Assembly: GCA_021904315.1 (NCBI GenBank)
Contig: CM038925.1
Location: forward strand, 8,620,501-8,684,500
Direction of reading: 5' to 3'
From: Sphagnum magellanicum
Taxonomy: Eukaryota > Streptophyta > Sphagnopsida > Sphagnales > Sphagnaceae
Length of the DNA stretch: 64,000 nt
Part shown: in pieces, positions 6,512 to 58,030 of the stretch
Layout: each line of letters begins with the position of its first letter
How positions within the stretch are numbered: position 1 is the stretch's first letter
Translations under genes and position numbers: made by a program
The notes under the pieces: model-generated
What the model was told of the DNA's origin: nothing
The model's input: only the letters and a program-made list of their open reading frames with translations
Databases searched by the model: none

Positions 6512-7082
6512 TCCCTCTTCTCTCCAGCGCCCAGGCGAGACCCGTTGCAACAACAACTTGGCCCTACTTGAAAGGAGGGGGCAAGAACCTGCCTATTACA
6601 GGACCGATCTCCTTTTCAATAATGATTCGAGAATGAAGATCACCGGAACGAACTTCCCGGCCAAGAGAGAGATTCTCCAGTTCTCCTTAACTAGAGAAAC
6701 TGCATCTTGTGATTAATTCACAAGAAAGAGACGCAAGTAAATCAACTTGTTGTGCAAAAACCATGTGCTCCTCTAGCTTGTTCTGCAAATGGCTTGAAGT
6801 TTGACAACAATAGTAGGCCATATTCAGAAACAACACATTTCTAATGTACTGCACCAAGACAATTCAAAGCAGCAGAAATTGCAGCACAAAAAAGCGAAGG
6901 ACGCGATGGATTGGAAACAAAAGTACATACCAGTGAGAGAGAGAGAACTAACTTGTTTGCAAAATTTTAAAAGCAAAAAAGAAAGAATCAACTTCTCTCT
7001 TAATGGAATTGCAACAAACAAACAAACAAGAAAAAACACATTCAATGAAGAAGTATCACGAATGGTAAATCAAACAGAAAAC

Positions 7083-25240: not shown

Positions 25241-25245
25241 GAAAC

Positions 25246-25525
25246 AAGCGGTGTGTCACACTCTGGCCTTGCCATTTACATTAAAAATATCTTAAAGAAA
25301 AAGGAGAATCATGGAAACTCAAATATTACACCATGCAAAAATATAATCTTTCAAAAATTCTCTAAAAGAAACCAAAATCCTTCAAGATATTATAACTCTA
25401 GAATTAATCTCAAGTTTCAACACAAGCCAAAATATCATCTTTTAAAAATCTTCATATAAAAATAGACCTAGTATTAGCTAGGGGCCAAAATCCCTTAAGC
25501 TATTATCTAAATCTATAATATCCTT
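25246..25525. repeat. Dispersed repeat family A, copy 2
   Basis: It matches copy 1 from 'ggtgtgtcacactctggcct' through 'caagtttcaacacaagccaaa' to 'aggggccaaaatcccttaag', with about one mismatch or small gap every ten bases. The terminal 'actctataatgaatct' part is reduced to 'tctaaatctataatatcc'. It directly precedes the repeat module that begins the Helitron mosaic. Confidence 0.8.
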
Positions 25526-25540
25526 GGGTGGTCGTCCTTT

Positions 25541-25727
25541 CCATCCATCCATCTCGTCATTCGTCCTTTGTCCATCCGTCCTCTGTCCATCCATCCAGTC
25601 GTCCATACGGATCGACACCTGGAAGCTCCGAGGTTGCTGACTGCACATATGTTTCTATTTTGCAACTTGGGGGTCCAAAGAGGTACTTCTATTGGGGGCA
25701 TGCCCTAAAGTTCCAAAACAATTGCAG
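25541..25727. repeat. Repeat module R, left copy
   Basis: It contains 'tcgtcattcgtcctttgtcc', 'gaagctccgaggttgctgac' and 'gggggtccaaagaggtactt', ending 'aaagttccaaaacaat'. The same blocks recur on the other side of the helicase at 29508-30025. Two matching blocks therefore bracket the H+-ATPase/Helitron segment. Confidence 0.8.
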
Positions 25728-25951
25728 GTGGGCCAATTAATATGGCTCCATTAAAATAAATAAAAAAGTTGTGAGGGCACCCATGATGTAATCACAGGGT
25801 GCACCACCTGTCTCTCCCCGTCCTCCCGTCCTTCCTTCCTCCCCCCTGCTCTTGAAACTTGTTGTCACCACCCCCACCCCAACTGCTTTTGGTGTGTGTG
25901 TGTGTGGGTATGGGATGTTTTTATTAAACTTCAATTGGGGACGGGGAACAG

Positions 25952-26826
25952 GAAAACATCCCGATCGAGGAGGTGTTTGAGCAGCTGAGATGTACAAAGG
26001 AAGGTCTCACCACAGATGAAGGAAATAACCGTCTTGCCATCTTTGGCTCTAACAAGCTTGAGGAGAAAGTGGTACCGTTTACGAATTCTTCCTTCTTTTG
26101 CCACTTCAACTTTTGTTTTTTTTCTAGAGGGATATCTGGGCATATAGAAGAAGCTTCAAGGAGATGATCCAAGATGTCAAAATTTCTCCTTAGTAATTTC
26201 ACCATTGCATTGCATAATTTCTGATTTCAAATTCAGGAAATTTTGGGGGTAACAGATAATCCCCAAACAGTTTGTGCTATGATGCCATCCTTAAACAATG
26301 GGTTTTGTTTGAAAAGATTTTTAGAATCTTCAAAATCTTTGCCTTGGTCAATTTTATTTTAGAATGGTAGAATCATAATATTTCCACTAACCTAATTGCA
26401 GAACCATTGAAGTTGAAGGACATCAATTGTTAGTTGTACACCAACTTCCCATGAGTGTAGTTAGAGTGACATCTTTACTCTTTTATTTTTCTTCTCTCCA
26501 CTAACCCAATTGCAGAACCATTGAAGTTGAGGGACATCAATTGTTGGTTGTACACCAACTTCCCATGAGTATAGTTAGAGTGACATCTTTACACTTTTAT
26601 TTTTCTTCTGCAGATTTGCTATCTTTTTCCCTTCCTGCTTTGATTCTTTGGGAATTTTTTCTGAGACACAGTCTAGATCAGGCTTCTGTGCTGAGATTTT
26701 TGTGACTCTTCTTAATGCTTTTATGCAGGAAAACAAGTTCCTCAAATTTCTGGGTTTCATGTGGAACCCATGTCATTGGTTATGGAAGTTGCCACACTGA
26801 TGGCTATTCTGTTAGCCAATGGACAA
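25952..26826 (+). pseudogene. Plasma-membrane H+-ATPase gene fragment (two exons and intron)
   Basis: Plant plasma-membrane H+-ATPases (P-type, AHA family) start with a short cytosolic actuator-side segment followed by membrane span 1. The exon at 25952-26068 encodes 39 residues including '[19 protein letters not shown]' and '[12 protein letters not shown]', a near-exact family match. The exon at 26729-26826 encodes 'ENKFLKFLGFMWNP' and, after a one-base loss, 'SLVMEVATLMAILLANG', which is the first membrane span. Acceptors (cag) and donors (gt) are kept at both exons, so the fragment came from genomic DNA, not from mRNA. No other part of the roughly 950-residue gene is nearby. The fragment stops 114 bp before a Helitron helicase exon in the same orientation, so capture by, or fusion to, the Helitron is likely. 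Confidence 0.88.
26384..26610. repeat. 114-bp tandem duplication inside the captured H+-ATPase intron
   Basis: A unit beginning 'ccactaacc.aattgcagaacc' occurs at 26384 and 26498. Both run through 'ttgtacaccaacttcccatg' to 'ttttatttttcttct', with only a handful of differences. It lies wholly within the intron between the two H+-ATPase exons. Confidence 0.9.
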
Positions 26827-26940
26827 GTATGGTGATCTATCTTTTTTATTTGGTTCTTGCTTTCATGTTATCATTGGTTTTGTTTTGTTTGTTTTGTTTG
26901 TGTTTTCTCCTGTCTTTTTCATTTTTGGCTTTGATTACAG

Positions 26941-28776
26941 TTTTGTGCGAAATTCAAATCAGCATGCATTGCACTTGGTTTGTATGACTCGGATGACGAG
27001 TGGAATGCCTGCTTGGAAGAAGCAGTTGGCATGCGAACAGGTGCGCAATTGCGGTCTTTGTTTGTGACCATCTTGGCCTTTGGCGTTCCAAGTGAGTCGT
27101 GCATGCTTTGGGACAAATACAAGGAACACATTTGCGATGACTACAAGGTAGCATTGCAACGTCGCGGTATAGTGGAATCGTCCATTGAGCAAATTGAGAG
27201 TTGGGCACTGCATTCCTTACAAGATGTGCTTGCCAAATTTAGCAAAACTCTCGAGGATTTTGGCCTTCCTACCCCATCTGTTGCCTTTGATCGGTTAGAG
27301 ACCAATCGCTTGCTTGAGGTGGAGCGCGACTACAATGTCGAGGTCTTGCAAGCCGAGGTGGTTATGGCCATTGAGAGCCTCAATGATGGGCAACATGCAG
27401 CCTACAATGGCATAATTGATGCATATGCTGCCCATCACGCTAAAGTCATCTTTATCGATGGCCCTGGTGGAACGAATAAGACCTACATCGAAAACTTGAT
27501 TTTGAACGTTGTGCGTTCGCGTGGCGATATTGCACTTGTTATCGCCTCTTCAGGCATTGCAACGCTTCTGCTTTCAGGAGGGCGAATGGCCCACTCATAC
27601 TTGAAAATCCTGATCGCGCTCGACTGTACGTCCTTCTGCTATATTTGTAAGCAGGATGATTTAGCGGTGCTAATTCGTCAAACAAAGCTCATCCTTTGGG
27701 ATGAAGCTCCTATGACTAATAAGCTTGCTTTTGAAGCGGTGGATCGAACTCTGTGTGACCTTACAAACAGGAACGAACCCTTTGGTGGCATTGTTTTCGT
27801 CATGTCAGGGGACTTTCGCCAAGTCCTTCCAGTCATCCCCCGAGGATCCCATGCAGACATTGTTTTTGCATCAATAAAAAACTCCTACCTATGGGAATTT
27901 GTTGAGGTATTCCATCTTTCATAAAATATGCGGGCCAATGATGCTGTTGTTGTTCACCTTGATTTTGGGAATCGCACTTTTGCAGACTGGCTTCTTTGTC
28001 TTAGCAACAACGAACTAGAAACCATCGATGAGGACTACATCAAGTGTCCAGACATGATGGTACTCCCTCCTGCGGATACACAAGCCATGGTTGTGGCCAT
28101 TTACCTTCGACTACACGAGGGCTAGGCCACAAACGAATATTTGCATGAACGTGTGATTTTGGCTCTTTGCAACAAGGAGGTTTTGTTAATAAACGCAATG
28201 GTTTTAAGCTACCTTCCAAACGCACAAGTCAACTTCCTCAGTGCGGATTCCGCAGAGGATATGGAAGTGGCGAACACATACCCTTCCGAGTTTCTCAACA
28301 CTTTGGAAGTTAGTGGCATGCCTTCACACAAGCTGCTGCTCAAGATTGGCGCACCAATGATTCTGCTGCGCAATCTTGACCCATTGGCTGGGTTGTGTAA
28401 TGGGACGCGCTTGATTGTTTGACGCTTCACGATGCGAGTCGTTGAGGTTGAGATCATCACAGGAAAAGGGGCTGGTAATGTGGCCTTTATCCTGTGCATT
28501 AAGTTCATTTCCAATAACAGCGGTTTGCCATTTACATTTGCAAGGAAGCAATTTCCTTTGCGGCTGGCTTATGCCATGACTATTAACAAGTCTCAAAGGC
28601 AGACCCTCTCTCATGTTGGCCTTCATCTCGGAGATGATGTTTTTTCGCATGGCTAACTTTACGTTGCCTTTTCACGTGCCAAGGCACCAGCGAACATCAA
28701 AGTTCTACTGCCAAACACTGTGCATGGCCGGAGTGGCCTTATGTGCAATGTTGTGTACGAAGAAGCCCTCCTTTGA
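26941..28776 (+). pseudogene. Helitron PIF1-type helicase, truncated and broken
   Basis: The longest open part (26980-27924) and following pieces give the helicase half of a plant Helitron Rep-helicase. Recognisable are motif I region 'FIDGPGGTNKTYIEN', motif Ia 'VIASSGIATLLLSGG', motif II 'LILWDEAPM', motif III 'FVMSGDFRQVLPV', then 'YPSEFLNTLEVSGMPSHKL', 'AYAMTINKSQRQTLSHVG' and 'YVAFSRAKAPANIKVL', with a stop at 28774-28776. The Gly before Lys in motif I is Asn. Four in-frame stops (for example where the family has 'QNMR' and 'HGQLY') show it is dead. The Rep/HUH half is missing: sequence starts at 'FKSACIALGLYDSDDEW', right after an ag acceptor at 26939-26940. It matches the complete Helitron at 36.6-41.9 kb but is a different, distant copy. 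Confidence 0.88.
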
Positions 28777-28825
28777 GGAAAGAATGAAGCTTCCCCTAAC
28801 TCCACTTGGTACGGACAGTGGCTAC

Positions 28826-29019
28826 GGAATGGGAAAGAAATAAACCAAGAAGAAGAAAAAAAAAAACCTTTGGACAAAGGATATGATTGACGTAAAGACT
28901 ACGAAATGGGAAAGAAATAAACCAGGAAGAAGAAGAAAAAAAAACCTTAGGACAAAGGATATGACTAACGTAAAGACAAGTATATACCTTTGGACAAAAG
29001 ATGTGACTAACATAAGGTG
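28826..29019. repeat. 79-bp tandem repeat after the helicase, about 2.4 copies
   Basis: Units begin 'aatgggaaagaaataaacca' near 28828 and 28907. Each continues through an A-rich stretch to 'cctt.ggacaaaggatatga' and 'taaaga'. A third, partial unit starts near 28987. A related 'gggaa.gaaataaaccagga' lies at 29788, so the unit is also dispersed. Confidence 0.85.
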
Positions 29020-29292
29020 TCACGTGTGGTGCTATTAGGAACAAGAGTTTGGGGAACTTATGGGAACATATTTAGCGCACCATTGGTTGGTTTCAGAAAC
29101 TGTTGTTGTGAACAAAAAAAATACCACTGTGGGGGTGGGTATTTGATTTTTTTATAATACCCATATGCTCTGACTATTTGGAAGAAAAAAAACAAAATGA
29201 AAAAACCATTGGTTCTGGGTATTTAAAAAAATTTAGAATCAAAAGAATCACTGGGTTAGGGTATTTCATTAAAAAAACAAAATCACAGAATC

Positions 29293-29505
29293 ATTAAAGA
29301 ACCGGAGTGGGAAATGCAAAGGACCGGCCGAGGGGGATCAACAGGTTAAAGAACCAGAGTGGGAAATGCGAAGGACCGGCCGGGGGGGGCTCGACAGGTT
29401 AAAGAACCGGAGTGGGAAATGCGAAAGACCGGCCGGGGGGGGCTCAACAGGTTAAAGAACCGGAGTGGGAAATGCGAAGGACCGGCCGGGGGGGCTCGAT
29501 GTCTC
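29293..29505. repeat. 55-bp GC-rich tandem repeat, four copies
   Basis: Units start with 'ttaaagaaccggagtgggaa' near 29293, 29346, 29401 and 29454. They contain 'aaggaccggccgggggg' and end 'ctcgacagg'. The array stands out as GC-rich in AT-rich surroundings. The last unit runs straight into the next copy of module R. Confidence 0.9.
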
Positions 29506-29507
29506 GT

Positions 29508-30030
29508 CATCCGTCCTCTGTCCATCCATCCGATCGTCCATGTGAATAATAATTTAAGATGATGATGTTGTTATTGCTGCAGAAATGTTGTAAGTTAGCC
29601 AATAGCACCTGGGTGTTTAACCCATAAAGGAAGAATGAAGCCTCCCCTGAATCCGTGCGTCTCGTCATCCGTCCTTTGTCCATCCGTCCGGTCGTCCATG
29701 CGGATGGATACCCTGAAAGCTCCGAGGTTGCCAGCTGCACACCATCCCTCTGCTGAGTCTGACACTGCAGCTTTCTGCCCACCAAGAATGGGAAGGAAAT
29801 AAACCAGGAATGAAATAATAATAATTTAAGATGATGATGTTGTTGTTGCAGAAACGTTGCAAGTTAACCAATAGCACCTGGGTGTTTAACCCATATGCTT
29901 TGCCCAAAGTTCAAACTCCCCTATAAATAAACTATAATCCAAGGGTGCACATTTGTTTCTATTTTGCATTTGGGGGTCCAAAGAGGTACTTCTATTGGGG
30001 GCATGCCCCAAAGTTCCAAAACAATGAAAC
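29508..30030. repeat. Repeat module R, right copies (nested direct duplication)
   Basis: 'ctcgtcatccgtcct.tgtcc' occurs near 29511 and 29669. 'aataataatttaagatgatg' followed by 'tagcacctgggtgtttaacc' occurs near 29544-29625 and 29816-29893. The string 'gggggtccaaagaggtactt' recurs at 29970, as in the left copy at 25541-25727. The stretch is built from two staggered direct copies plus the distal end of the module. Confidence 0.85.
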
Positions 30031-30185
30031 TATAGAGGCTCCCCAAGATAGAAGGCTTCTATATCTTTGACTACACACTCAAAACCAACCAAATATATTT
30101 GATAATTTTATCTTTTTTTTCTCTTTCCCCCCCCCCCTCCCTCCTCACTTTTGGGGGACTTCACAGTGTCCGAAGGTCACGGGTA

Positions 30186-30260
30186 CCCACTAGTACTCTA
30201 TAATGAATCTAAACACAATATCAGACTTGCCTTGGTAGACAAGGCCAATAAAACCCTGAT
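30186..30260. repeat. Dispersed repeat family A, terminus only (copy 3)
   Basis: 'actctataatgaatctaaac', 'acaatatc' and 'ttgccttggtagacaaggcc' match the right end of the foldback at 36500-36557. Only the terminal 75 bp are present, about 600 bp upstream of the charged-repeat gene's start codon. Confidence 0.8.
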
Positions 30261-30708: not shown

Positions 30709-30720
30709 GTATAAAAAGCT
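30709..30720 (+). promoter_or_regulatory. Likely TATA box of the charged-repeat gene
   Basis: 'tgtataaaaagc' lies about 125 bp upstream of the ATG at 30841. Plant TATA boxes sit about 30 bp before transcription start, which would give a 5' leader near 100 bases. The preceding 30240-30700 stretch is GC-rich relative to the window and carries a 'gatcgatcgctcgctcgctc' simple repeat near 30410-30440. Confidence 0.5.
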
Positions 30721-30840: not shown

Positions 30841-32846
30841 ATGAGTAGTAGTGCGACAATGGAGCCTGCAGCTGCAGATGATAGTGCAGGATCAGCGCAG
30901 CAGCTTGGCTCTCATGGGGACCATGCAGGTGATGCCGATAACGGCCTTAGTGGAATTGTTGGTGATGGTGCTGGAGAAACGAAGGACGAGCTGAAACCAG
31001 ATCAAATCCGTGCGCCTGTCGTGTACCCGGGGGAGGTGGAAAACAAGAATTTCGTGAACCGCTCGGAAGTGACAGGAGAAGGACCCGCCTATATCCCCGA
31101 CCCCGACGGACCCAACGCCCGTTTTCTCGTAAGTCCCGTGACGCTAGTCTTATGATCTCCCAGCAGCTAGACTTGAGTCTTGACAGGTAAACTTGACGCT
31201 GCACTAGTGCTAAGGACCTGCTTCAAGAGATTGTAATTCTTTGTTTGCACAAGCAGTTTTAATCTTGAAGATTCTAATTTCTTCATCGACTGGTGCGGTA
31301 CGAGCAATTCTTTATATACAGATCATATGGTCCGGGTCACCTGCTTGAGTTTTTGCAGCCCAAGGAATATGAGACGCGGGTGGAAGTCATCCAGAAGTTC
31401 CCAGAGATGAAGATAATTGAGGAGACTGTGTTCATCAAGGAAGTCTACTACGAGGAGAGGACAATCACTGTACCTCGAACCAAGGTGATCATGGAGGAAA
31501 ATGTGGTAATTGACAAGGTTCCTGTCATCCGGCAGGTCCCTAAGACCAGGATTGAGATTGTGCACAGGTAAGATCAGCTCGAGTCTAGTACTAGGCAAAT
31601 TTATGCATGCTTGCTCCTCGTCAACTCCATGAGCGGTTGGTGTCGACTGCAGCAAGCCTGCGACAAAATTATCAGTCGAGGACTGCAGCAACACTAGCTA
31701 GCTAGAATAAATTTCCAAATTGGGTAGTAATTACCAGGCGCTTGATGTCCACAAGCAATCCATCATGATGTGGCTTTTTCGATCCTTGTGCAGAATTGTG
31801 GAAGAGCCCCGGGAGATCACCGAAATGGTAGAAGTCGTGGAGTACATGGAGATTCCGAGGGTAGAGAAAACGCCCAGGATCATCACCGAGGACGTGTTGG
31901 AGACTGTGTCAGTTCCGGTTGTGAGGGAGGTGCCTCTTACACGCCAGATCGAGGTCCCCACCGGAAAGTGAGTATCTTTACATCCATCTCCACCGATGCT
32001 CAGTATGCGTGGCCCTGCACAGGAAATCTTGGATGAGGTGTAGCAGTCACGTCCAGTACTGGATCCACTTCTCTAACCCTGGAAAAACCATAGCTTCCAA
32101 GGTCCTGGAGGACCCCTGAAAGAAGAGTCTAATAAACACAGTTACATCGTAATTTATGGACTGCTCCCTGTTTCTGATTGGGCTAGATAGTTTGATCGGT
32201 CCAGGTGGTTTGCTATTAGTACTCTCCCCACCTATTTGCAGTCCCAATTTTAGTTTTATGCCTGGGTTGGAAGAAAAGTAAATAACTAAAACTTGGATGT
32301 GAGAAATATTTTTGCAGGTTCACATACTGAGCACCGCTGGAGATGCTCTTATATATATATGTTTGCGTTCTTCATGGGCATAGCTTAGTCTGAGTCCACA
32401 GATCTTAAATTCGTAAAGAAGAGTTCGAGATTAACTTGATCATCTGATCATGTCTAATTTTGCAATTGATTCTTCTTCTTCTTCTTCACAATTGCAGCTA
32501 CATCGAGAAACTCCACAACAGATATACAGCTCCAGGGGACATGAATCTGCTACGCAATTTGGAGAGAAAGGTGGCCGCCAAGCTCAACGACGGTCTTCAC
32601 AGAAACTTGAGCAACAACAACTCCGAGTCGGTTTCATCATCCGGTCGACAATATCATGCAGCAGATTCAGAAGCTGCTGCTGAAGTTTCTACTACTACTG
32701 AAGCAGCACACACTCCTCCCCATTCTAACGGATCTTCAGAGATTAGTGCGACGACGTCCGCGCGGCAGACGACGACGCCCAAGAAAGGTCTCTTGAAGAG
32801 GCTGGAGCACAGGTTCTCCAGCTCCCACGGACATACGGTCGTATAA
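30841..32846 (+). CDS. Val/Glu/Pro charged-repeat protein (alveolin/articulin-like composition), four exons
   Basis: Function unknown. Exons 30841-31128, 31305-31567, 31794-31967 and 32498-32846 join in phase into 357 codons plus a stop, a model from splice sites only. Residues 1-96 are acidic and low-complexity, ending with 'GPAYIPDPDGPNARFL'. Residue 104 starts 'YGPGHLLEFLQPKEYE'. Residues 117-240 are a run of short charged beta-like repeats rich in V, E, I, R and P, such as 'VPVIRQVPKTRIEIV' and 'VPVVREVPLTRQIEVP'. Residues 244-270 ('YIEKLHNRY..', 'LLRNLERKVAAKL') look helical. The Ser/Thr-rich tail ends in 'GLLKRLEHRFSSSHGHTVV'. Such V/P/E repeats are the hallmark of alveolins, articulins and related membrane-skeleton proteins of protists; a cortical or cytoskeletal role is inference only. 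There is no signal peptide or membrane span. Exon 2 needs the acceptor ACGAG|C at 31304; the stronger ATACAG at 31321 is out of phase. Intron 3 holds a MITE remnant. Confidence 0.72.
32122..32350. mobile_element. Tourist-like MITE remnant in intron 3
   Basis: From 'ctccctgtttctgatt' (32163) to 'gagcaccgctggagatgctc' it matches the better-preserved element at 43578-43972. The right end is the inverted form of that element's left terminus (gagcatctccag). The left half is diverged and its end is uncertain. It lies inside the third intron of the charged-repeat gene. Confidence 0.65.
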
Positions 32847-33175
32847 TACCAAAAATACGTACGTATCTCTACAACCAAATTTGACACACAACAGTATACA
32901 TATCTACAATACAGTATACTGTATAATACAGTATTTTCTGTACAACCATTTGACCATGCCGTATGTGTTCTCACATAGTATATAGGTCTTTTGAGAGGCT
33001 CCAGAACCGGATCTCGAGCTCACCCATGGTCATACTGACGTACAGTACAACAATACGTAGCGTATGTCTACAACCATGTGACATACCTTGTTTCTGGCGA
33101 TACAGTACGGTCTAATGCAGTATGTCTACAGCCATTTGATCATACCGTATGTGTTCTCACATCGTATATACTTCC
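32788..33175. repeat. Tandem duplication of last-exon end and 3' flank
   Basis: Unit 1 (32788-32985) covers the last codons ('..LKRLEHRFSSSHGH..') and the 3' flank with 'acgtacgta.ctctacaacc', 'gtatactgtataatacagta' and 'ccgtatgtgttctcacat'. Unit 2 (from about 32988) repeats this: 'tcttttgagaggctccagaa', 'tctcgagctcacccatgg', 'cgtatgtctacaacca' and again 'ccgtatgtgttctcacat'. The duplicated coding part is no longer in an intact frame. Confidence 0.8.
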
Positions 33176-34830: not shown

Positions 34831-35990
34831 CTACTTGCTGAAACGAAGAAAGTGAAAAATGTACAAACAAAAAAATAAAGGAAAGTATGAAGATAAAAGA
34901 ATCCTCAACCCTAAACCAGTAGTTTTTAAAAAAAAATTTAACCTAAATTTTCAACTTAAAAGCCAATATTTACATAAAATAAAAAAAGTTAACCTGTTTT
35001 GGTTCCATAACAATCCCAAGGAAAAAAGCATCAAGGATTATTACACAATAGATGAAAAATCTGAGGAAGTTGGCCTAGTTCCTCATGGAAAGCGTCCAAA
35101 TAAGGTGTTCCAAGCTCTCAAAAGAAAGGGGATAATGGACAAAATCTAATTGTTCAATTATTCAGGGGTTCAATTTGAAGAAAATGATAGATGTGAAAAT
35201 GAATACATAATAAATAAATAATCAATTTTCCATCATGTATGAACCTAAATCCTTCTATTCACTGGCTTGGTCTTAAATTAGTGTTGCATCACATATTATC
35301 TTTCATTTTAAAAACATTTATACTTTTTTTAAATTATCACAAAAATATTCACAATTTTTTCTTAAAACCTTATTTCCTGGGCACTTGTCTTGGAGTAGCA
35401 TTGAGTCTAATTTAATTCACTTCACATGTTTGTAGGGGAGGCAACCTATGTCTTCATGATGACAACACTAAACTTTTTTTTCATAACTTTTTTGTGATTA
35501 AGGGCAGATTTGTTTTTGAAAATGTCTTTTTTTTTATTTGCTAACCTATAATTTTGGTTGAAAAAAAGCGAATTTTCACTCCAGAACAAAAAACACTGAT
35601 GTTTAGTGTTTGATTTTTGAGTCTACATTTTTAGTTCAATCATCAATTTAACCTTAATACAATCAAATATATGTAGTATGATGTACTAGAGAACAATCCT
35701 TTTATGGTGCATTTTGTCGGGTGCACCATCACTGAGCTCCCAAGAGGAGTGTGACCCGACAAGCTCAGTGAGGTAGGAAAATGGGCTAAATTGGCAATTG
35801 AGGCCCCTTACATGGAGGGAATGAGCCAATGTGGGGCTAATTAGGATGGGAAAAGCCCTAATAAAAATTTGTTTTCATTTTAATATTATAAATATATCAC
35901 GTCCATAGACTAAGTCTTGGTCTCTACTCCAAATCTAACACTTGGTGTTATCTCCAATGTAGTCTACTGGACTGATTCAAAGCAGCCTGT
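34831..35990. other. Intergenic, no gene seen
   Basis: A 96-codon lysine-rich open frame at 34859-35149 has no recognisable domain and sits in AT-rich sequence. Near 35714-35775, inverted pairs (gtcgggt/acccgac and cactgagct/agctcagtg) could form a stem structure. Confidence 0.4.
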
Positions 35991-35992
35991 TT

Positions 35993-36557
35993 ATTGGCCT
36001 TGCCTACCAAGGCAAGGATATTGTATGTAGATTCATTATAGAGTATAGTAGCTTAATGGATTTTGGCCCCTAGGTAGTAGGTCTATTTTTATATGAGGAT
36101 TTTTGAAAGATGATATTTTGGCTTGTGTTGAAACTTGAGATTAGTTATAGAATTATGATAATTTGAAGGATTTTGTTTTCTTTTAGAGGATTTTTTTGAA
36201 GATTATTTTTTTGCATGGTGAAATATTTTGAATCTCCAAGGGATGTGACACACTGTGGCCTTGCCATCTACATTATAAAGTGTCTTTAGGCAAAAGAAGA
36301 ATTATGGAAATTCAAAATATTTCACCATGCAAAAATATACATAATCTTAAAAAAATCCTCTAAAAGAAACCAAAATCCTTCAAGATATTATAACTCTGTA
36401 ACTAATCTCCAGTTTCAACACAAGCCAAAATATCACCTTCCAAAAATCCTCATATAAATATAGACCTATTACCTAGGAGCCAAAATTCATTAAGCTACTA
36501 TACTCTATGATGAATCTGAACACAACATCCTTGCCTTGGTAGGCAAGGCCAACAAAG
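35993..36557. mobile_element. Foldback element, repeat family A (565 bp)
   Basis: The left arm (35993-36236) and right arm (36316-36557) are inverted copies about 240 bp long, separated by an 80-bp centre containing 'gtgacacactgtggccttgc'. The arms match over nearly their whole length with scattered differences. Each outer tip holds a short perfect hairpin, 'ccttgccttggtaggcaagg', with a 7-bp stem and 6-base loop. Other copies in the window are single-armed. No coding capacity. The class is unresolved: foldback, MITE or a non-autonomous rolling-circle element. Confidence 0.85.
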
Positions 36558-36662: not shown

Positions 36663-39600
36663 TTATAACACCTCTGTGTAAACAACATTTCGGGTATACA
36701 CACCGGCAGGTGCATCTTCATGAGCATTCTCCCACCCATCTGTAACCAGCATTTTCACACCCTCGGGGCACCCAATGCGCGACATGGCCACATACAACTG
36801 GCCATGTGTAAATACAGGTTTGGGCAGGAAAATGCCGACCATTTTCAATGTCTGCCCTTGCGCCTTATTGATGGTCATGGCAAATGCAGGGCGCACAGGA
36901 AACTGGCGTCGGCGCAGAGTGAAAGGCATTCGTTTTGTGTCTAAAGGTGTGATGCTTAATCGTGGAATGAACACTCGTTGGCCCTTTACAGGACCTGTTG
37001 CCACCTCTGCTTCAATGACATGCTTCATGAGTTGAATGACAATGAGCCTAGTACCATTAGCCAGGCCGTTGGTCATGTTGCGTAATAATATGATGGGACA
37101 ACCCTCCTGCAAGTGCAGTTCATGGGGTGGTACGCCCGGAAAATTGAGTGTGTTCAAGAACTCAGTGGGGTAAATGCCATGTTGATCCCCATGCATCACA
37201 GAATCCGCGCTGTAATACACGCGGTGCTGTGCGGGCGAGCCATCGTGCTTTGTGAATGCATATGTGTCATTGATGAGTTTATTGAATGCATCCACATTTT
37301 CGTTCAAAGGTGTAAGAATTGCACGCTCAATGATGTATGCAGATCTTGCAGCATACTCAACAATAGATGATAGAGCGCCATACACTTCTTCAATCAAATC
37401 TGCCACAGTAGGGCCATTGCAACACATGTCATGAGGAATAAGAATGGAGTCTTCACCAACAGAGGGATACACGCGCTCTACGCCCTCCCCCACACGTTGT
37501 AAGTAATCAGCAAATGCCTGCAGCCGTGTGGCATCTGCTTGTGCATACGCGTCACCCTGAACCAACAACCTCTGCACGCGCATGTTGGTGTACAGCTTGA
37601 ATACACGCACATGTTGCCAAATGCTAGAACGGTTCAAAGCTGCTTTGACAACATCTCCCCTGGTGCCGCGGGGCACAACAGGCAAAATTTGCCGAAAATC
37701 GCCACCAAACACCACAACCAAGCCGCCAAAGGGCAGGAACTTGAATGCTGGGTTAATGATAGCCATGATGTCCTGCAAAGACCTGTTGACAGCCTCAAAA
37801 ACATGCCTATGCATCATGACAGCCTCATCCCACACAATGAGCGCAGCTGCTTGCAAAAGTGCTGCCAGGTCAGAGTCCCTACTGATGTAGCATGTGGACG
37901 TGCTATTGAGGTCTTGCACAAGGATCTTGAAACGTGAATGTGCAGTGCGGCCTCCGTCCAGCAGCAATGCAGCAATGCCAGACGATGCCACAGCAATAGC
38001 GACCTGACCTTGTGCGCGCACGGTGCTTAGCAAACAACTATAGAGAAAGGTTTTGCGAGTGCCACCAAGGCCATCGACAAAAAATGCACGGCAGTCGACA
38101 ACGACCATGACATTGTCATAGACAGCTCGTTGCTCAGGGTTAAATTGCGGCACGCGCTCATCTCGTATGGCTGCTTGCGTTGCCACATCATACCTGGCAA
38201 TTGCGTCTGCCACCACAGCACTGGCAGGTTGGGCCGCAGGCGTCGGCAAGCCAAATGCTGCCAAGTCATGGCTGCTGTTGAGGTGTGCCAAGTGTAGCGC
38301 CAACTCCCGTAGCACCATGTCCCGGATGGCAGCATCGAATTGCCGCGCTCGCTCGTCCTGCACGTTATAGGAGCACACACACGACATAGTGAGCATTGAG
38401 CGCCGCACAACATGCAAACCATGAACATGCAAAACCGCAAGGCAGGCTAACATGCATAGCCATACACGGACAAAGCTGAGCACCAACCTGGCGTGCTTGA
38501 TACAGAAAGTCTTCTGCCATGTCTTCCTTGAAGCGCTCCCACAGAGTTAATGGGTTTGCAACATCATTGAACACCAGCAAGGCAGCAAACAGTGCCCTGA
38601 GACATGAGGCACTGGCCATGCTTGCAGCCTCTTCCATGCACTGGGCCCACTCAGCATCGTCCTGTAGCAAACCACGCTGCTGACATGCTTCTTTGAAAGA
38701 TGCGTGCTGCGTGGGATGTTGCAAGTGCCTGTTGGTGCACGCGAGGTCCTCAAAAGATGTAGCCCCAGGCACATGATGCAGCAAAAGACGCAAGAAGTAC
38801 CTCTCCCCCTCGAAGGGTTGCACAAAGTACATGCGGCCAACTAGCAACAGACTTGGCGTCCATGTGCAGAATGCCCATTGCTTTTCCTTTTTTTTCCATG
38901 TGGCAATTTGTGAAAAGTCATGATAAAGCGTGTTGAGAGCCAAGCGCAATGGTGCAGATGGATTGAGATGCTCCCGTGCTGTTTTGTTAAATGCAAACCA
39001 TGCAGTCAGAGTTATGTGAGGGTTCTTGTTAAGTATGGCCGCAACATCAGTGCCCTCTTGAAACAGGATGGTCTGTCGCCCTTTCAAGTGCATAGCAAGC
39101 CGAACGACATTGGGGTGCTCCTTGTGCAGATCAAAGCCATACAAACGGTGGCTGGCCTCAGAAGTCGACACATACTGGCCGTCTTGGTAGATCTTGATCT
39201 CATCCCGCATGCGTGGCTGAGCGAGTGCAGCGCCATCAGGTGCAGCAGCATCTACCGGGCCAACGTCCACCTGTGCACGATCGTGGCCCTTGTAGACGTA
39301 CTTGTAGAGGTATTTGACAGCCGTGATGGAGGAGCAGACCTCCACGTTGATGTGGCAGTTGAAGAACAGGGACAGGTACGGGTTGTAGGGCACCACCCAA
39401 CGGTTGTCAAAGGCAAACCCACCCCTGCAGCAGTAGCAGCCAAAAAATAATTGTTACGTGAACGGTGACACAGGTCAATAAACGCAAGCATGGCAACATA
39501 GTCGTGCATGTTGTTAGTCCAAATGCATGGTCCTACTGCTAGCACACTTACCGCTCAAATGTGCGGCCATCATCCCGGCGGCAGTATGTTGGGTAGGAGC

Positions 39601-41325
39601 CGGTGGTGTCAGTGGTGTGCTCTGTGAAGGCCTTAGGGTAGCCTTTTGAACAAACACCGTCAGCCATGCAAGTGCAATGTGGGTTGATGGTGCCACAGGG
39701 GCCATGCACCATGCATCTTGTAACGACCTCAAAAAGAGTGGGGTGTGCATTTTTATCTGGCAACTCTGCAGACACCATGCGGTCGTATTCATCGGGCCCT
39801 CGTGGTTTGTCATCGGAGTGCAGAATGAGCAGAATGTGTGCATGGGGCAGGCCTCTCTTCTGCCACTCAATGACATGAATGTTAGCCACCACCTCGCCAA
39901 AAACGCCCTTCTTCAAAAGCTCGTTTAGCAAATGTTGTAATTTCCCAACAAAAACGCGTGTTACCAAATCAGGGCGATCATTGGCAATCTCGCCGGGCTT
40001 CAGCGCGCTAATAATCTCTTCCCACTTGGGGTTGCAGGTCATGGTGATGAACAAATCAGGCTTGCCATATTGGCGGACAATGGCCATGGAATCTTGGTAC
40101 AATTGAGCCATGTGTCGTTGTCCAACAGTGAATGAGGATGGCAATACAATGAGCCTGCCCAGGTTGTCAATGTTGGCGTCGTTATTGGCAACAGCATCAG
40201 CCACGCCACCATAAATTGCAGCACGCAAAGGGCCCTGGTTGTTGCGTATGTAAAACAGTCGTTGTGACTCCACTTTGTTATATTGGTCAACAATCCACTC
40301 TTGATACAAACGTTTGCCATACACAAAGAAGGCGTGCGATGTCGGGTTCCTATCGTGCATGTGATAGCAAGCCCACTCTCGTGTAGTGATTTTTTTGCGT
40401 TGTGCAAGTTGTGTTGGCCCTGCATCTGCTGCAACATGCTCAGCATCACCTTCTTCCTCGCTGTCATCATCCTGTGCAGGTTGTGCTGGCTCTGTATCTG
40501 CTACAACATGCCTAGCATCACCTTCCTCCTCGATGGTAACAGCCCGCCGGCGGACAGGGGCAACAGGAACATGGGTCATGCCTGGCTGCCAGCCGGGCTC
40601 ACCATGAGGATGGAACAGCACAAAGTGCAGCGGATCGTAAGCAGGGTGCAGGTCACTGATCCTCCATAGCCCTCCGCCGCGTGCACGCACTCTGATGTCC
40701 CTGCCTCTAACCGGCTCGTCACCGTTGCCTGTGCAGAAGCAACAACATTTATGTCAATGAATGAGGAACATTACACCAAGTGAGCGATGGCAACAAACAA
40801 ATAGCACAGCAGTACACGTTGCTGAAGAACCTCACCTGGCAGCAGCCCAGCCACTTCGGGGGCGGTAGGAGCATTGTAGCGGCGCTTGTCAACGTTGCCG
40901 TCGACCCTGATGACAACTTCCCATTGTGGCAAGTCGTGTGCAGGCATGTCCATGACTTGTTTGAAACGCTGCACAAATGTGTTGTGATCATGCAACATCT
41001 GTTGTAGCCCCGCCAAGGTTGGCTGATGCAAAGCAGCGCCCGTAGCACCCAAAGCTGCAAGGCGTGCTGTGACTTGTGCATCCATGGAATCAATGATGTA
41101 CAACTGGGCAAATTGTGGCACATCATGCTCGGCGGGCTGCAAAGGCCCCAGCAAGTGATGCACAGCCCCTTTGATGGCAATCATGCTGATCCCTTCTTCC
41201 GGGGAACGAATGTGCAAGCCCGTTGAGGCCATCTGCAATGCAGAATTGTATGCACGAATGTTCTGCCTAAAATCCTTAATGGCAGGTGGCAAAGGTTGTT
41301 GCTCACTGGGCAAAATGGTGAGCAA
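36663..41325 (-). CDS. Helitron Rep-helicase (RepHel), exons 4
   Basis: Exons 41325-40836, 40728-39552, 39424-38488 and 38357-36663 join in phase through GT-AG introns of 107, 127 and 130 bp. Rep nicks and joins DNA through an HUH site: 'LFITMTCNPKWEEI', then 'EWQKRGLPHAHILL' (HUH) in exon 2 and 'YLYKYVYKGHD' (the two Tyr) in exon 3. The helicase in exon 4 unwinds the strand: motif I 'FFVDGLGGTRKTFLYS', Ia 'VASSGIAALLLDGG', II 'LIVWDEAVM', III 'VVFGGDFRQILPV', late motifs 'AFAMTINKAQGQTLKMVG' and 'QLYVAMSRIG'. The Gly before Lys in motif I is Arg, which would be expected to hurt ATP binding. From the Met at 41325 onward no stop is seen in the spliced frame. The true start probably lies upstream in the damaged N-terminal region. 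Confidence 0.85.
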
Positions 41326-41887
41326 ATTTTGAGTGGCTGAGGTGCAGGGGCGGGGAAAGCACTGATCAACCTAGACATCTTGCCACCGCCGCAACACAAA
41401 GTGGTGCGCTTTTTCTCGTGCTCAAAGCGAAGTGCATTGCAATGTGTGCACCTATGTGACATGGCACCCAATGAATGTACCACCAACCCCTCCACCTCAT
41501 CCGCAGTGTGGAGGGCTTGCTTCCCAGCTCGCCGGGCGCAAGCCCCTCGCCTGGCTGCTTGTCGCTGGTCAGCAAGCTGGGCTGCCCTGGCAGCACGCCT
41601 GGCAGAGGCATCCCGTTCCCTGACTGCCTACTAGTGTTCAGCAGGCTCGACTGCCCTGGCAACACGCCAGGCAGAGGCATCCCGTTCCCTGACTGCCTGC
41701 TACTGTTCAGCAGACTGGGCTGCCCTGGCAGCACGCCCGGCAGAGGCATGCCATTCCCTGACTGCCTGCTGGTGTTCAACAGACTGGGCTGCCCTGGCAG
41801 CACTTCTGGCAGAGGCATTCCGTTCCCTGATTGCCTGCTGTTGTTCAGCCCTCTGCATTTATACACAAAGTTCGGGAACCGTGACAC
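41181..41887 (-). pseudogene. Helitron N-terminal region: 69-bp repeats and Cys/His part
   Basis: Four diverged 69-bp units (about 41577-41850) code, in the Helitron frame, for 23-residue R/A/E-rich repeats such as 'QAVRERDASAWRVARAVE'. Arginine/alanine-rich N-termini are usual in plant Helitron proteins. The same frame continues into 'VVHSLGAMSHRCTHCNALRF' and 'TLCCGGGKMSRLI', a CxxC...CC zinc-binding-like part. Two of the four units carry TAG stops in this frame, and one base is lost near 41320-41335 just before the RepHel exon. Another minus frame stays open for 173 codons across the repeats, but that is a by-product of the 69-bp period. Confidence 0.7.
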
Positions 41888-43577: not shown

Positions 43578-43972
43578 TAAGAGCATCTCCAGTGGTCCTC
43601 CTGATGTGACCCTGCATATTAAAATTGGATGAAGAAAAGTCCAAACTGACAAAAAGTATCCAAACATGCCGGTTTGGCTCAGCAAAATAGTTTTGGACCA
43701 GCAAGTTTACATGGTTTGCCAAGGCTGGTAAAAAGGCACAGAAAAGATCACCCCCTGCCAGAGAAGTGTAATAAATATGATCTGACCACTAGGTACTCCC
43801 TGTTTCTGATAGGGATCGGTCCAAGTGTTTTGCTATTAGTAATCTCCCACCTATTTGCAGTCCTAGTTTTAATAATTTTATAGGTGGGCTTGGAAAAAAT
43901 AAATAACTAAACTTGGACGTGAGAAAAATTATTGCATGATCAGATAATAAGCACCCCTGGAATGCTATAATT
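43578..43972. mobile_element. Tourist-like (PIF/Harbinger-type) MITE
   Basis: The left terminus is 'gagcatctccagtggtcctc'. The right terminus is the inverted form, 'gcacccctggaatgct'. A TAA on both sides fits the 3-bp TWA target duplication of PIF/Harbinger elements. The inside is non-coding. The right half (43796-43966) matches the remnant in intron 3 of the charged-repeat gene. Confidence 0.65.
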
Positions 43973-48899: not shown

Positions 48900-51800
48900 A
48901 TTTACATAATATTAATGAAAATAAACCACCCTTATATTAAATACAAAATAAAATTTTCTAGAAACAAAATCATTTCATCAATTCAAAAATTAACACAATT
49001 GGAAGAACGTTTATTTCACCACATCTTGCTTTTGCTCAAATTTATAAACTACAATGGTATGGGCAATATAAAATGCATGGTAGTGTTATTAATGTCCTTC
49101 CAAATGTGTATCAAAGTTAATCAATACTATCACATTTGCCACATGACAGTGCAATAATAGGCGTGTTTTTTAAGCGACATTTGAATATAAATCACTTTAT
49201 ATGTCAAGTAAGGTTCGTCCATATATGGTGATGGTCAATTTATGAGATTAATTGAAACATCATTATACAAAGATTTGAATGTTACCATTCATCATCAATG
49301 GGCAAGTTTGTTTTCTTTGCATATGAATTCAAAATATCAAATTCCTATTTATTATAATGCATCATGTAATAACTTTAATTTTGATAATGAAGAAATACAT
49401 TGTACATTAACATATTCAGTGATACCTAAATTTTTAGATGTTCCAAATATAATGAATTATGAAAATATTATGTATTTTATTGCCCCAAGTCAAAACTTTC
49501 ACCCTTTCGATTTATTTAAAAATAAACATTTAGAAAAGCTAAATTTTCCAACATTTTTTTATGGGCAACCTCGACAATTTTCTAAAGGTTTTTCATATCA
49601 ACAAATATCTTAGTGGGAATTACTTCATAAATATGGGGATTTTTCAACAAATATTTCTAACCTTTTTTTTTAAGTTGCTAAAGTTTCATCCAAAAAGTCA
49701 TAGGTTCTAGTTAGGTGCGAATACGAAAATGAAAACTATATGGCAGAACTTTAAAAGCTTATCAAGTACATGATAAACCAAATTTAAATATTATCTTCAA
49801 ATCATACTTAGGTTATCATGATTTGGAAAGTTTGCATAATTCACCTGATTATTTTAAAAGGTTATGAAAAAATTCATTTGCAATGATTCAACAATTTGGT
49901 CCTCCAACATTTTTTATCATTTTTACATTTATTGAAAAACTATAGGATTCTCTCATTAAAGTTTTACACACATTACATGTTTCAAGATTAAATTTCTTAA
50001 ATAAAATAGAAGACCTCCAATCAACTTGATGCTTACCTTGTGCTTTCTTTATCATTACATCATTTATTTCGAACATTTCAATTCATAAATACTTCTCCTT
50101 TTGAAAATCAAGCTTTTGTTTTAAAATCACAAGTTGCATTAAATGAATTAGAACCAAATTCAATTGATATAATGTATTCATCAATCAAAGATAAATATAT
50201 TAATTGTCCAAATCAATATAAATCATTATCATTAATAGAATTTAGTTTTTTTTTAGCATTAAAAAAATTAAGATTTCAAAAAATTGTAAACCCAAAATTA
50301 TTAGGTTTGTAAATTATAATAAATATAAAGATATTGAAAATTAGTCGAGAGAACAAATTTTATTATATTCACCATTTTGAAATTCAGAAAATTTGTAACT
50401 TGAAACTAACGTAACCTAACATGATGCATATTCCCAACAACATGATGAAATTTTTAAGATTAAATTTATTTTCAACTACCAAATGTCATATTCAAATATA
50501 GAAAAAATGGATGATTCAATTAATTCAAAATCAAAACCATTACATTCAACTAACATTTGGATTCATGATATAGATAATGAAATAAATGAACCACGTCCTG
50601 CAATTTTTATAACAAACACAATCAATATTGAACATTATGATTTATGATCTAACTTTGTCATTCAATCATGTAATGGATCAAACCAAAAATCATAATTTTT
50701 AGAAAATGAAAATTTCACAAAATCATCATATTCCATGATGATAAAAAATTTTGAATATTGTAATTTACTTAAATAATTAAATTTTAAAATATTAATATTT
50801 GATGATATTACACATAAAAAAAAATTGTACCCTCATACATCAATATGTTTAACTCTAACAGGGGGTGTTAAAAACTGGTAAAATTTTTACATTATAGTTC
50901 ATAATTCAAAGGTTATTATGATTATACAATAGAGACATGTCTTCTAACTTAACAAAAACTAAGGTTTTACTTATGGCATTAATATGTAAAACTGCTTTCA
51001 ATATTGAAGGTTCAATGATACATTCAACATTGAACATACGTGTCCAACAATCCTTATATAGTTTACCAAATTTATCATCAGATTCATTAAATAGGTTTAC
51101 ATGTCAATGTGAACAATTACAACTTGTTATGATAGATGAAATATCACTTGTTGTTACTAAAATGTATAATGTTATAGATAATAGGTTAAGGTCCATAAAA
51201 CACATTCAAAACATATTTTTTGGTGGTGTTGATGTTATCATGACAAGTGATTTCCTTCAAGCACCCCCTATGAAAGATAGTTTGATCTTTCAAAATATCA
51301 AAGATAATGTTAATACATTAGCACCAAACTTTTGGCAAACATATGTCCAATGTTATAAATTAAATAAAGTTATGCAACAATTCGATATGATTTTTATACA
51401 AACTTTGAACAAATTTCATACTACAACAAAAAATACAAAGGGTATTTAATTTATAAATTCAATTTGTAATCGACAACCACCTAACAATTTTAATATTCTA
51501 TATTTATTTAATACAAATAAACTTGTGCAAAAACATAATGAAAATGTGTTTATTAACACATTAGGTCCCACGTTTATTTTCAAAACAATGGACATCAACC
51601 ATTAATCATGTCCACCATCTTACAAATTTTCAAATGATCCAAGTAAAACTGTGGGTTGGCATTCTACAATTCATATAAAAATATATATGTTGGATGAATT
51701 ATGTGCTAATAATTCTGCAACATCTAATGGTTTTGTGAATGGAACTAATGGCATTTTTAAAACATCAACAACATATTGTGAAAAAACCATTATATGGATA

Positions 51801-55481: not shown

Positions 55482-57168
55482 TCAATATGTGTAATGGACA
55501 CTGGTGAGGAATTTGAGGCTCTCCCACTCTTCACCATAAGCTATGCCTTCGTCTATGTAGCATAGCTGATACTCTGCATGTTTTAGGCTTCGGATCCCTC
55601 GCTTGAGTAGCCTTTGCCATCCTTTTCTCCCCTTCAATGCTCTTGCAATGTCTTCGGTTTTCTGAGATGGGTCAAAGACAATCAAGAATAGTTCATCATC
55701 ATGTGTTGCTGCTGTTGCACCCTGCTGTCGCTGCTGCCTCTCAATGCCCACAATTGTCCTGGAATGACCCCTGTGCTGGAAATAGAGTGGGGAACGCCTG
55801 CTGCATATCATGGGCTTTCTCACAGGATCAAATGCAAGAGTGGGTGTCAAGCTCTTTGACTCACCTGGCATGTCCATGAAGTAATTCCAAACCCAGTCAA
55901 CAAGATGTCGGTGGTTGGAGGAGACAATTATGTCAGGCTTCTGGGATAGCTCTTCTTCTTGCCTGCCATCATCCTCTCCACATTTCTGATCATACCATTG
56001 TAATCCATTCTCTGCACATGTGCACACCCACAACAGGAAACAACATAAATTTTCTCCAACATGTGTGATTTCAGAACAAAGGATCAGTGAATTTGAATAG
56101 GAGGAGAAACAGACCACAATCCCATGCACTCTCTCTCTCTCTCTCACCCAGCTCAATGGCATGATTGTCTTGAATTGCTGCTGAAGATGATAACTGCTGC
56201 TGCTGCTGCTGTCTCCTTGTCTGCTCTGAATTGGAGATGCCACATTTACCATGATCATCACCAATTGCTACAATTCCTTTCTTCTTCCTTGCAGCACATT
56301 GGAAATCAACAATGCGAGCACGAACACCAAATGATCGGAGCAAAGCAGCACACTCAGTGGTTCCAATCCATTTACGAGTGCCACGAATGTGCCAGTCGAA
56401 GTAATCTGCTCCTGCAAGATCAAAGCCTTTGGCCCATGCAACTTCAAGCCAGTTTTGTAAGGCCAAGATATCAGGAACAAACCCTGCTCCACCAAACAAT
56501 ACATCCTTCATGTGCGGGTCTTGCATCATCAAATGGAAGCTTAACATTTGGATGTTGCGCCAACCACAACCCCATCCCAAATCCTCCTCCTTCCTACTCT
56601 CAAAGTGTCGGACATTTGCTGCCAAAACTACAGTTGACATCCAGCCAGCCTTTTGATCTGTCTCCAGGCACTTTTGCAGCAGATTCATCAACTCCAGGTC
56701 TTGCAAATGTGAATTGAATGGTTCCCGCATTTGGGTCATCAGAATTGCTTTGATATTGGATTCAATTGAGTTGTCAATTCCTGAGGTTCTATGAATTTGC
56801 CACTTGGGTGGTAGCAAGTTTCGACCACCTTCTGTGTGGTGGTAGTGGTCACTACTAGTTTCTCGATTCGAGGTTTTGGAAACTGGGTCAGGTACTACTA
56901 CTTCTACCTTGTGATCAAAATCCATACTAGTAATTTTGTCTAAGAGCTGCTGCTTATTACCTTCTTCTTTTTCTTCACCTCTTGGAGCCAGAGGTGGAGG
57001 AGGCTCACTGGTGGAGGCCACTTGTTGTTGGGTGTTTGACACCACAAGGTCTTCTTCTTCAGCAAGCAGCTGTTGACCGTCAAGATTGCAACTGAAATTC
57101 ACTTGCACAATGTGGCTACTACTACTACAACACCCACAAGACTTCTTCATCTTTTCCAGATTCTTCAT
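55482..57168 (-). CDS. ZUFSP: ZUFSP/ZUP1-like cysteine protease (peptidase family C78)
   Basis: Family members are papain-fold proteases; the animal ZUFSP/ZUP1 protein cleaves K63-linked ubiquitin chains and relatives (UFSPs) process UFM1. Two exons, 57168-56148 and 56011-55482, join in phase (GT-AG intron of 136 bp) into 516 residues. The catalytic Cys is C201 in 'DLGWGCGWRNIQML'. The His is H423 in 'YFQHRGHSRTIVGIE'. The Asp is D454 in 'LFLIVFDPSQKT'. Also typical are 'GTRKWIGTTECAALLRSFG' and the C-terminal 'SLKHAEYQLCYIDEG'. These resemble ZUFSP more than UFSP1/2. The first 120 residues are low-complexity, with clustered Cys (CGCC) but no clear C2H2 finger of the animal type. A Gln run lies at residues 320-325. 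No stop or frame fault is seen, so the gene looks functional. CT repeats lie in the intron and about 690 bp upstream. Confidence 0.9.
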
Positions 57169-58030
57169 TTGGAAAATTCAAAAAGGCTTTCAATTCTTTT
57201 GGAGCTCAAACAGATTCATTCTCCATTTGGAAAATTCAAAAAGTTTTCAATTCCTTTGGAGCTCAAACTGGAGACTTGAACCTAATAAGATGCTTGAACC
57301 ATCCACATATGTACTTCAAAAAAGCAAGCATCAGATTATTGGGTCATGCTGAAATCAGCTAACCCAACAACAACTCCTGTTCAACTTTTGTCAGAGCTTC
57401 CACATGATGATCCATGGAAGAAAATCTCACTAGCAAAAACATGCCCAAAAAAGGAGTTCTTGCATTTTCTTTTGCCCTTTGCTGCTGCTAGGGACACAAA
57501 GTCAAGTGATCATTTTTACAAAGGGTTTTTGGAAAGCTCAAATTTATTTCCCTTTCATTCATACTCACTCACTATGTACATACTTTTTTCTTTCACACTG
57601 GGTTGCTCTTGAATTCTCCCCTTGGTTCTTAAATTCTTTCTGCCTTTGTTCTTTTGTTTCTCCAAAGAAGAATTTGTCACCCTTTTGTTGCTGCTAGCTA
57701 TTGAAGAGAAGAGAAAGCTAATAATTCAACAACCTAAAACATCAAAAAAATCATGTAGAATTTGAAAGGGCACAAAACTCTTCCACAAAAGTCACAACTT
57801 TTCACACACCAGAAGGAAAAAAAACCACATTTTTGCAAAACTTGCAAACTCAAACTCTCTCTCTCTCTCTTCCTTTCCCCCCACTCTTCTTTGGAAGACT
57901 TGCATAAGTAGTTCCTACACTTTGATCATATGTTTTCAGGCTTCACAAATTTGGCAAATTTGGGTTCCTCATTTTGTGTGCAATTTACCTAAACCCTAAA
58001 CCCTAATATTTTCCAAATTTTTTTCTTTTT
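57169..58030 (-). promoter_or_regulatory. 5' leader/promoter region of the ZUFSP-like gene
   Basis: Pyrimidine-rich on the plus strand (GA-rich on the coding strand), with a (CT)n run at 57856-57870 and two telo-box motifs (aaaccctaaaccctaa) near 57991. A 31-bp-scale direct repeat, 'catttggaaaattcaaaaag' with 'ttcaattc.tttggagctca', occurs at 57167-57210 and 57223-57267 just upstream of the ATG. No TATA box could be assigned with confidence. Confidence 0.4.

What the first reader, a model, noticed from the sequence alone, without database searches (positions are those of the whole stretch)
30841..32846. Plant gene for an alveolin/articulin-like charged-repeat protein
The sequence shows an in-phase four-exon gene whose middle 120 residues are dense V/E/I/R/P repeats (for example 'VPVIRQVPKTRIEIV'). 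Repeats of this composition define membrane-skeleton proteins in alveolates and euglenoids; I know of no characterised land-plant gene of this kind. The flanking 'YGPGHLLEFLQP' block and basic, Ser-rich tail may be conserved anchors of an undescribed family. Homology to true alveolins is not shown; similarity of composition may be convergent.
Basis: partly seen in the sequence, partly recalled or inferred. Interest (0 to 1): 0.8.

Follow-up and report, generated by a model that had tools for sequence, protein, structure and literature searches.

The report
Plant gene resembling protist membrane-skeleton proteins
A plant nuclear DNA window carries what looks like an intact gene whose middle third has the unusual valine-, isoleucine- and charge-rich make-up of the cell-cortex proteins of certain single-celled organisms, but common descent, expression and function are all unproven.

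Summary
A frame-consistent four-exon model (30841-31128, 31305-31567, 31794-31967, 32498-32846; 357 aa) is in the sequence. Residues 111-240 have 30.8% V+I, 35.4% charged residues and no Ala or Gly. In a six-frame scan of the window only the ORFs of exons 2 and 3 pass a filter for this composition; 0 of 50,435 E. coli windows do. Ten of eleven residue frequencies fit published "epiplastin" means; Thr is 3.1 SD high, acid-base dyads are at chance level, and 2 VPV triads are too few for an articulin. A 6-residue periodicity exists, half the 12-residue alveolin/articulin repeat.

Homology to alveolins is not supported: Pfam lists no IMCp match (no positive control could be run), and the other searches found no relative. 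No plant or protist collection was available, so conservation is untested. The join of exons 1 and 2 is uncertain.

Best reading: an "epiplastin-like" protein, defined by composition and probably convergent, perhaps an extended-strand scaffold held at a membrane by a basic C-terminal segment. The gene is very likely real; its function is inference.

The parts
30710..30715 (+). TATA-like box (TATAAA), 131 bases upstream of the ATG; possible promoter element
   Evidence: pattern scan; consensus match only
30841..31128 (+). Exon 1: ATG; acidic Gly/Ala/Ser-rich head, residues 1-96, ending in PVVYPGEVENKNFVNRSEVTGEGPAYIPDPDGPNARFL (31015-31128)
   Evidence: open frame, GTAAGT donor at 31129
31129..31304 (+). 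Intron 1 (176 nt, phase 0) in the 357-aa model; the join is uncertain (acceptor 31304 weak; acceptor 31321 better but out of frame with this donor)
   Evidence: enumeration of GT/GC...AG joins
31305..31567 (+). Exon 2: 'SYGPGHLLEFLQP' block and first half of the V/I/charged core
   Evidence: open frame, GTAAG donor at 31568
31568..31793 (+). Intron 2 (226 nt, phase 2)
   Evidence: GTAAGA...GTGCAG
31794..31967 (+). Exon 3: second half of the core; symmetrical 2-2 exon, similar to exon 2
31347..31962 (+). Span of the core coding region (residues 111-240; interrupted by intron 2): V+I 30.8%, charged 35.4%, Ala 0, Gly 0, Thr 9.2%, net -8
31968..32497 (+). Intron 3 (530 nt, phase 2); holds a stretch 32164-32347 78% identical to 43796-43966 (perhaps a transposon fragment)
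32498..32846 (+). Exon 4: possible amphipathic helix (about 32499-32609), Ser/Thr/Asn/Ala-rich linker, basic C-terminal stretch PKKGLLKRLEHRF (32778-32816), stop
   Evidence: helices inferred from sequence

Best explanation
The locus is a genuine multi-exon plant nuclear gene for a protein of about 357 residues without cysteine, of the epiplastin-like type (as Goodenough et al. use the term: an epiplastin profile in an organism not shown to build an epiplast). Its middle 130 residues probably form extended, V/I-rich strands with charged positions on a 6-residue rhythm. Copies of the protein probably associate strand to strand and by charge pairing into a filamentous or sheet-like scaffold, while the flexible acidic head and the basic C-terminal segment (PKKGLLKRLEHRF, possibly an amphipathic helix) place that scaffold on an acidic membrane surface. 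The core was probably lengthened by duplication of an exon (exon 2 / exon 3). The likeness to alveolins and articulins is more likely convergent than inherited. Shown: open gene structure, composition, periodicity, exon 2/3 similarity, no reported IMCp match. Inferred: strand conformation, self-assembly, membrane binding, expression, any cellular role.
For: In-frame exons with good splice sites in introns 2 and 3. The core lies within about 1 SD of the published mean of 219 epiplastins for 10 of 11 residues compared (against values read). A+G = 0 over 130 residues, V+I 30.8%, charged 35.4%, net -8. The composition is confined to these two exon ORFs in the window and absent from the E. coli control. 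6-residue periodicity and exon similarity. Head (13.6% Gly, 10.9% Ala) and tail (10.3% Ala, 13.7% Ser) contrast with the core as in epiplastins. An alignment-free AlphaFold2 model of the 57-aa exon 3 stretch is extended with only a 4-residue helix (mean pLDDT 76.9, pTM 0.16).
Against: Thr 9.2% is 3.1 SD above the epiplastin mean; acid-base dyads are no commoner than in shuffles (7 against 7.8). The AlphaFold2 model of exon 2 is unusable (mean pLDDT 38.8; short strands and a 7-residue helix), and in the exon 3 model no strand is assigned either. A simple propensity table (values recalled) gives similar helix and strand averages, helix higher at about residues 111-135 and 181-205. In the hydrophobic-moment ranking the last basic segment is not among the top eight helical stretches, so its amphipathic character is a reading by eye. 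No transcript, homologue or localisation is available. A land-plant cell normally has a wall, so the need for a membrane skeleton is unclear.
Confidence: 0.45

Rival explanations
1. A true homologue of alveolins/articulins: an ancient eukaryotic membrane-skeleton protein kept in some land plants and missed in surveys.
For: Composition, layout and the 6-residue (weaker 12-residue) rhythm agree; glaucophytes have epiplastins; the authors of PMC4303705 suggest that articulin-like proteins may be far more widespread than assumed (passage).
Against: No Pfam IMCp row with the limit at E<=10 (no positive control could be run); the 2018 survey reports no IMCp-based candidates in red or green algae; VPV count below the articulin cut-off; no cysteine.
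Confidence: 0.08
2. A plant-lineage adaptor or disordered linker protein of unrelated function (for example a binding scaffold for signalling or organelle proteins) whose strand-prone core is compositionally similar by chance.
For: Long low-complexity head and tail; no domain match above cut-off in Pfam or NCBIfam and none in PHROGs or PDB; dyads not enriched.
Against: 130 residues without Ala or Gly at 31% V+I are not typical of disordered linkers (recalled); only these two exon ORFs in the window have it.
Confidence: 0.33
This does not exclude the other readings of what it does.
For: No plant sequence collection was available; Pfam covers only families with models.
Against: No Pfam match above its cut-off (only RepB_C, 12.3 bits for the protein and 15.8 for the core, cut-off 27.3).
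Confidence: 0.25
4. Not a working gene: a decayed, captured or chance open frame among transposons.
For: Transposon sequence lies on both sides (PIF1 ORF at 26935-27921, Helitron ORFs at 36666-40753); uncertain exon 1-2 join.
Against: Exons open in phase with the biased composition continued across intron 2; GC at codon positions 0.58/0.41/0.58 against 0.43 in introns; the upstream repeat match ends at 30252, before the gene.
Confidence: 0.07

Closest known systems
Epiplastins / epiplastin-like proteins (Goodenough et al. 2018, PMC6212826)
   Same: Medial V/I- and charge-rich core nearly free of Ala and Gly, negative net charge, Gly/Ala/Ser/Thr-rich head and tail
   Different: Thr three SD above the mean; dyads at chance level; no epiplast known in land plants (recalled); no IMCp-based candidates in green algae in their survey (their species table was not seen)
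Alveolins (IMC proteins; Pfam IMCp; 12-residue repeats, PMC4303705, passages)
   Same: P/I/V/E/K-rich core; periodicity at 6 and, more weakly, 12 residues
   Different: No IMCp profile match reported; no Cys for palmitoylation; land plants have no alveoli (recalled)
Articulins (Euglena, ciliates)
   Same: V/P-rich core with VPV triads (in KVPVIRQVP and SVPVVREVP)
   Different: 2 VPV triads; the published class cut-off is more than 3

Membership tests
Epiplastin-like (composition class) | Core rich in V/I (mean 33%, SD 7) and charged residues (mean 35%, SD 6), A and G about 0-1% | tested here: met
   V+I 30.8%, charged 35.4%, A=0, G=0
Epiplastin-like (composition class) | Low Thr (3%, SD 2) | tested here: not met
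   Thr 9.2%, z = 3.1
Epiplastin-like (composition class) | Acid-base dyads at short intervals | tested here: inconclusive
   7 dyads in 130 residues, at least 4 residues between neighbours, but shuffles give 7.8 on average
Epiplastin-like (composition class) | Core predicted as beta-strand/coil, no alpha-helix | tested here: inconclusive
   Exon 3 model extended (pLDDT 76.9, no strand, one 4-residue helix); exon 2 model too poor (pLDDT 38.8); propensities mixed
Epiplastin (proper) | Organism builds an epiplast containing the protein | not testable with these tools
   needs microscopy
Alveolin | Match to Pfam IMCp | tested here: not met
   No IMCp row at E<=10 for the whole protein or the core; that the model is in this copy and works was not checked (one search failed)
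Alveolin | Tandem repeats of 12 residues | tested here: inconclusive
   Lag 6 strong (0.27% of shuffles at any lag), lag 12 nominal P 0.012; the program of the paper, HHrepID, was not available
Articulin | More than 3 VPV triads in the core | tested here: not met
   2 (criterion read)

The most novel reading that the evidence does not exclude
Some land plants carry a plasma-membrane skeleton protein built on the epiplastin plan, for instance in a wall-less cell such as a swimming sperm (if the source is a seed-free plant) or at specialised cortex, acquired by convergence or kept from an archaeplastid ancestor.
Probability: 0.12. Interest if true: 0.85.

Novelty: new variant of a known kind. 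Interest (0 to 1): 0.45.

Why it matters
Plants lack spectrin-type membrane skeletons (recalled). A plant protein of this composition would either show that the V/I-plus-charge strand design arises repeatedly or push the epiplastin design into the green lineage, and it offers a single gene that can be tagged and deleted to ask the question.

Tried and rejected
Searched for relatives of the 130-aa core in viral contigs (16 pattern matches, none confirmed) and prokaryote genomes (62, none confirmed), of an 81-aa exon 2 stretch in prokaryote genomes (144, none confirmed), and of the core in plasmids and phages: no relative. The contig searches used a single protein and so reach close relatives only. 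PDB by sequence: 0 of 177,635 distinct sequences at E<=10. PHROGs: none at E<=1. NCBIfam's only row was a folate/biopterin transporter model at 9.6 bits, cut-off 216.4, and Pfam's only row, RepB_C, was far below its cut-off: both taken as noise. No fold search was run: exon 2's model was too poor, and exon 3's is a single extended chain with pTM 0.16. The idea that the gene is cargo inside a transposon was considered: repeat matches at 25245-25506 and 30189-30252 correspond to two neighbouring parts of one copy at 36237-36556, so they look like one repeat copy split by a 4.7-kb insertion that ends before the gene (inference). The micro-exon solution for intron 1 (35-nt intron) was set aside as too short for a usual plant intron (recalled).

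Paper searches: (at least 2 of the terms) were too broad (25 listed of 10,219 and of 61,551; no listed row held alveolin or articulin). Searches (13 listed of 14; 15 listed of 20) brought the papers used. 'alveolin'+'Marchantia' 0 papers, 'alveolin'+'Physcomitrella' 0, 'alveolin'+'land plants' 4, of which only PMC6212826 was opened, epiplastin/articulin/alveolin with algal terms 20 of 59 listed. A search on plant sperm structures gave 3 listings, not opened. The library lacks most subscription papers, so absence from print is not shown. A telomere-repeat search was empty; Rfam and tRNA scans of the window were empty.

Full report
Observation. The finding's gene is in the sequence. Joining 30841-31128, 31305-31567, 31794-31967 and 32498-32846 gives 1074 nt, an ATG-to-TAA frame of 357 residues. 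Introns 2 (226 nt) and 3 (530 nt) are phase 2 with good GT...GCAG borders. Intron 1 begins GTAAGT, but the acceptor the model needs (31304) looks weak, while a better acceptor at 31321 is out of frame with that donor. One search lists 16 in-frame joins of exon 1 to the SYGPGH block; those that reach the better acceptor use GC donors or a weak GT donor at 31023 (a protein 41 residues shorter), and a 23-nt micro-exon behind a 35-nt intron is a further option. The join is uncertain; the core is not affected.

More than chance. Residues 111-240 hold 18.5% V, 12.3% I, 19.2% E, 8.5% R, 6.2% K, 8.5% P, 9.2% T and no Ala or Gly. A filter set for this profile passes 44 of 12,905 six-frame 50-aa windows of the 64-kb window, all in the ORFs of exons 2 and 3, and 0 of 50,435 in three E. 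coli K-12 stretches (432 + 24,872 + 25,131). The filter was chosen after seeing the protein and E. coli is a distant control, so this shows distinctness, not a probability. Codon-position GC (0.58/0.41/0.58) differs from intron GC (0.43).

Internal structure. Hydrophobic and charged positions repeat at lag 6; 0.27% of 3000 shuffles reach the observed value at any lag from 2 to 40, and lag 12 has nominal P 0.012. The exon 2 and exon 3 stretches align with score 65 (shuffles 37.8 +/- 6.9, largest 78; 6 of 3000 reach it). Shuffling also destroys the 6-residue rhythm, so part of that similarity may be rhythm rather than duplication. Exon 3 is a symmetrical 2-2 exon, as expected of a duplicable one. 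tblastn of the model against the window at E<=10 finds, besides its own exons, the exon 2/3 similarity (E 3.4) and one chance-level match (E 7.7).

What organism. No whole genome is held for the window. Of 43 open stretches of at least 110 aa I scanned 10 against Pfam: a non-specific lipid transfer protein ORF at 6170-6592 (-) (LTP_2, E 1.2e-12), a two-part C78 peptidase at 55485-57177 (-), and Helitron/PIF1 sequences; 3 of the 10 had no match. This fits a land-plant nuclear genome with sparse genes; nsLTPs are known only from land plants (recalled). The species or clade is not identified.

Comparison with the known. Goodenough et al. 2018 (PMC6212826; seen: outline and abstract, sections 6 part 1 of 2, 9, 30, 42 part 1 of 2, 48, 51, and one passage; supplements not seen) define epiplastins by composition and predicted secondary structure and call matches in organisms without a known epiplast 'epiplastin-like' (insects, some basidiomycetes, Caulobacter, heteroloboseans). 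The plant core lies within about 1 SD of their means for 10 of 11 residues; Thr is 3.1 SD high. Dyads number 7, shuffles average 7.8. VPV occurs twice; their articulin cut-off is more than three. Alveolin repeats have a 12-residue period, and the authors propose one superfamily for alveolins, articulins and plateins that may be more widespread than assumed (PMC4303705, 12 of 14 passages). PMC4448529 (passages) treats alveolins as restricted to alveolates. Pfam shows no IMCp row with the limit at E<=10 for the protein or its core; HMMER's filters drop most matches above about 0.1. I could not run a positive control for that model (one search failed), so this negative is moderate evidence only.

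No relatives elsewhere. PDB, PHROGs, viral contigs (19), prokaryote genomes (20, 46), plasmids and phages gave none; NCBIfam gave one noise row (17). None of these collections is a plant or protist genome collection, so conservation is untested, and the protein may be a family well known in plant databases.

Structure. AlphaFold2 without an alignment gave an unusable exon 2 model (87 aa, pLDDT 38.8; short strands and a 7-residue helix) and an extended exon 3 chain (57 aa, pLDDT 76.9, pTM 0.16, no strand assigned). Simple propensities are mixed. The data do not contradict an extended core and do not prove one.

Mechanism. Best supported: a strand-prone scaffold core between a flexible acidic head (net -10) and a tail (net +3) whose last part is a basic, possibly amphipathic segment (PKKGLLKRLEHRF). 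The strongest helical hydrophobic moment lies earlier in the tail, at MNLLRNLERKV (residue 257), which may be a second contact site. With no cysteine in the protein, palmitoyl anchoring on cysteine as in alveolins is excluded for this model. Assembly and membrane binding are inference.

Verdict. A probably real gene with a striking, correctly described composition; 'epiplastin-like' is a fair descriptive label, 'alveolin' is not. Interest 0.45: the surprise depends on plant-wide conservation and localisation, neither of which could be tested.

Noticed in passing
window 32786-32984 and 32984-33170: The end of the gene's coding sequence and the adjoining 3' flank are followed by a 74%-identical tandem copy, so the C-terminal end seems to have been duplicated and to have decayed downstream.
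   Followed up: partly
window 25245-25506, 30189-30252 and 36237-36556: One repeat copy appears to be split by a 4.7-kb insertion (about 25507-30188) that holds a PIF1-helicase ORF (26935-27921 +); the repeat match ends about 590 bases before the gene's ATG.
   Followed up: partly
window 36666-40753 (-): Helitron-type element: Helitron_like_N and PIF1 domains in separate minus-strand ORFs; another PIF1 remnant at 50922-51446 (+).
   Followed up: partly
window 35990-36197 and 36349-36556: Inverted repeat of 208 nt, 91% complementary, 151 nt between the arms: two copies of the repeat above, head to head.
   Followed up: no
window 41569-41849: About four copies of a 69-bp tandem unit inside a 210-aa minus-strand open stretch beside the Helitron ORFs.
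   Followed up: no
window 55485-57177 (-): C78 (Ufm1-protease-type) peptidase gene in two overlapping minus-strand open stretches in different frames, probably separated by an intron.
   Followed up: no
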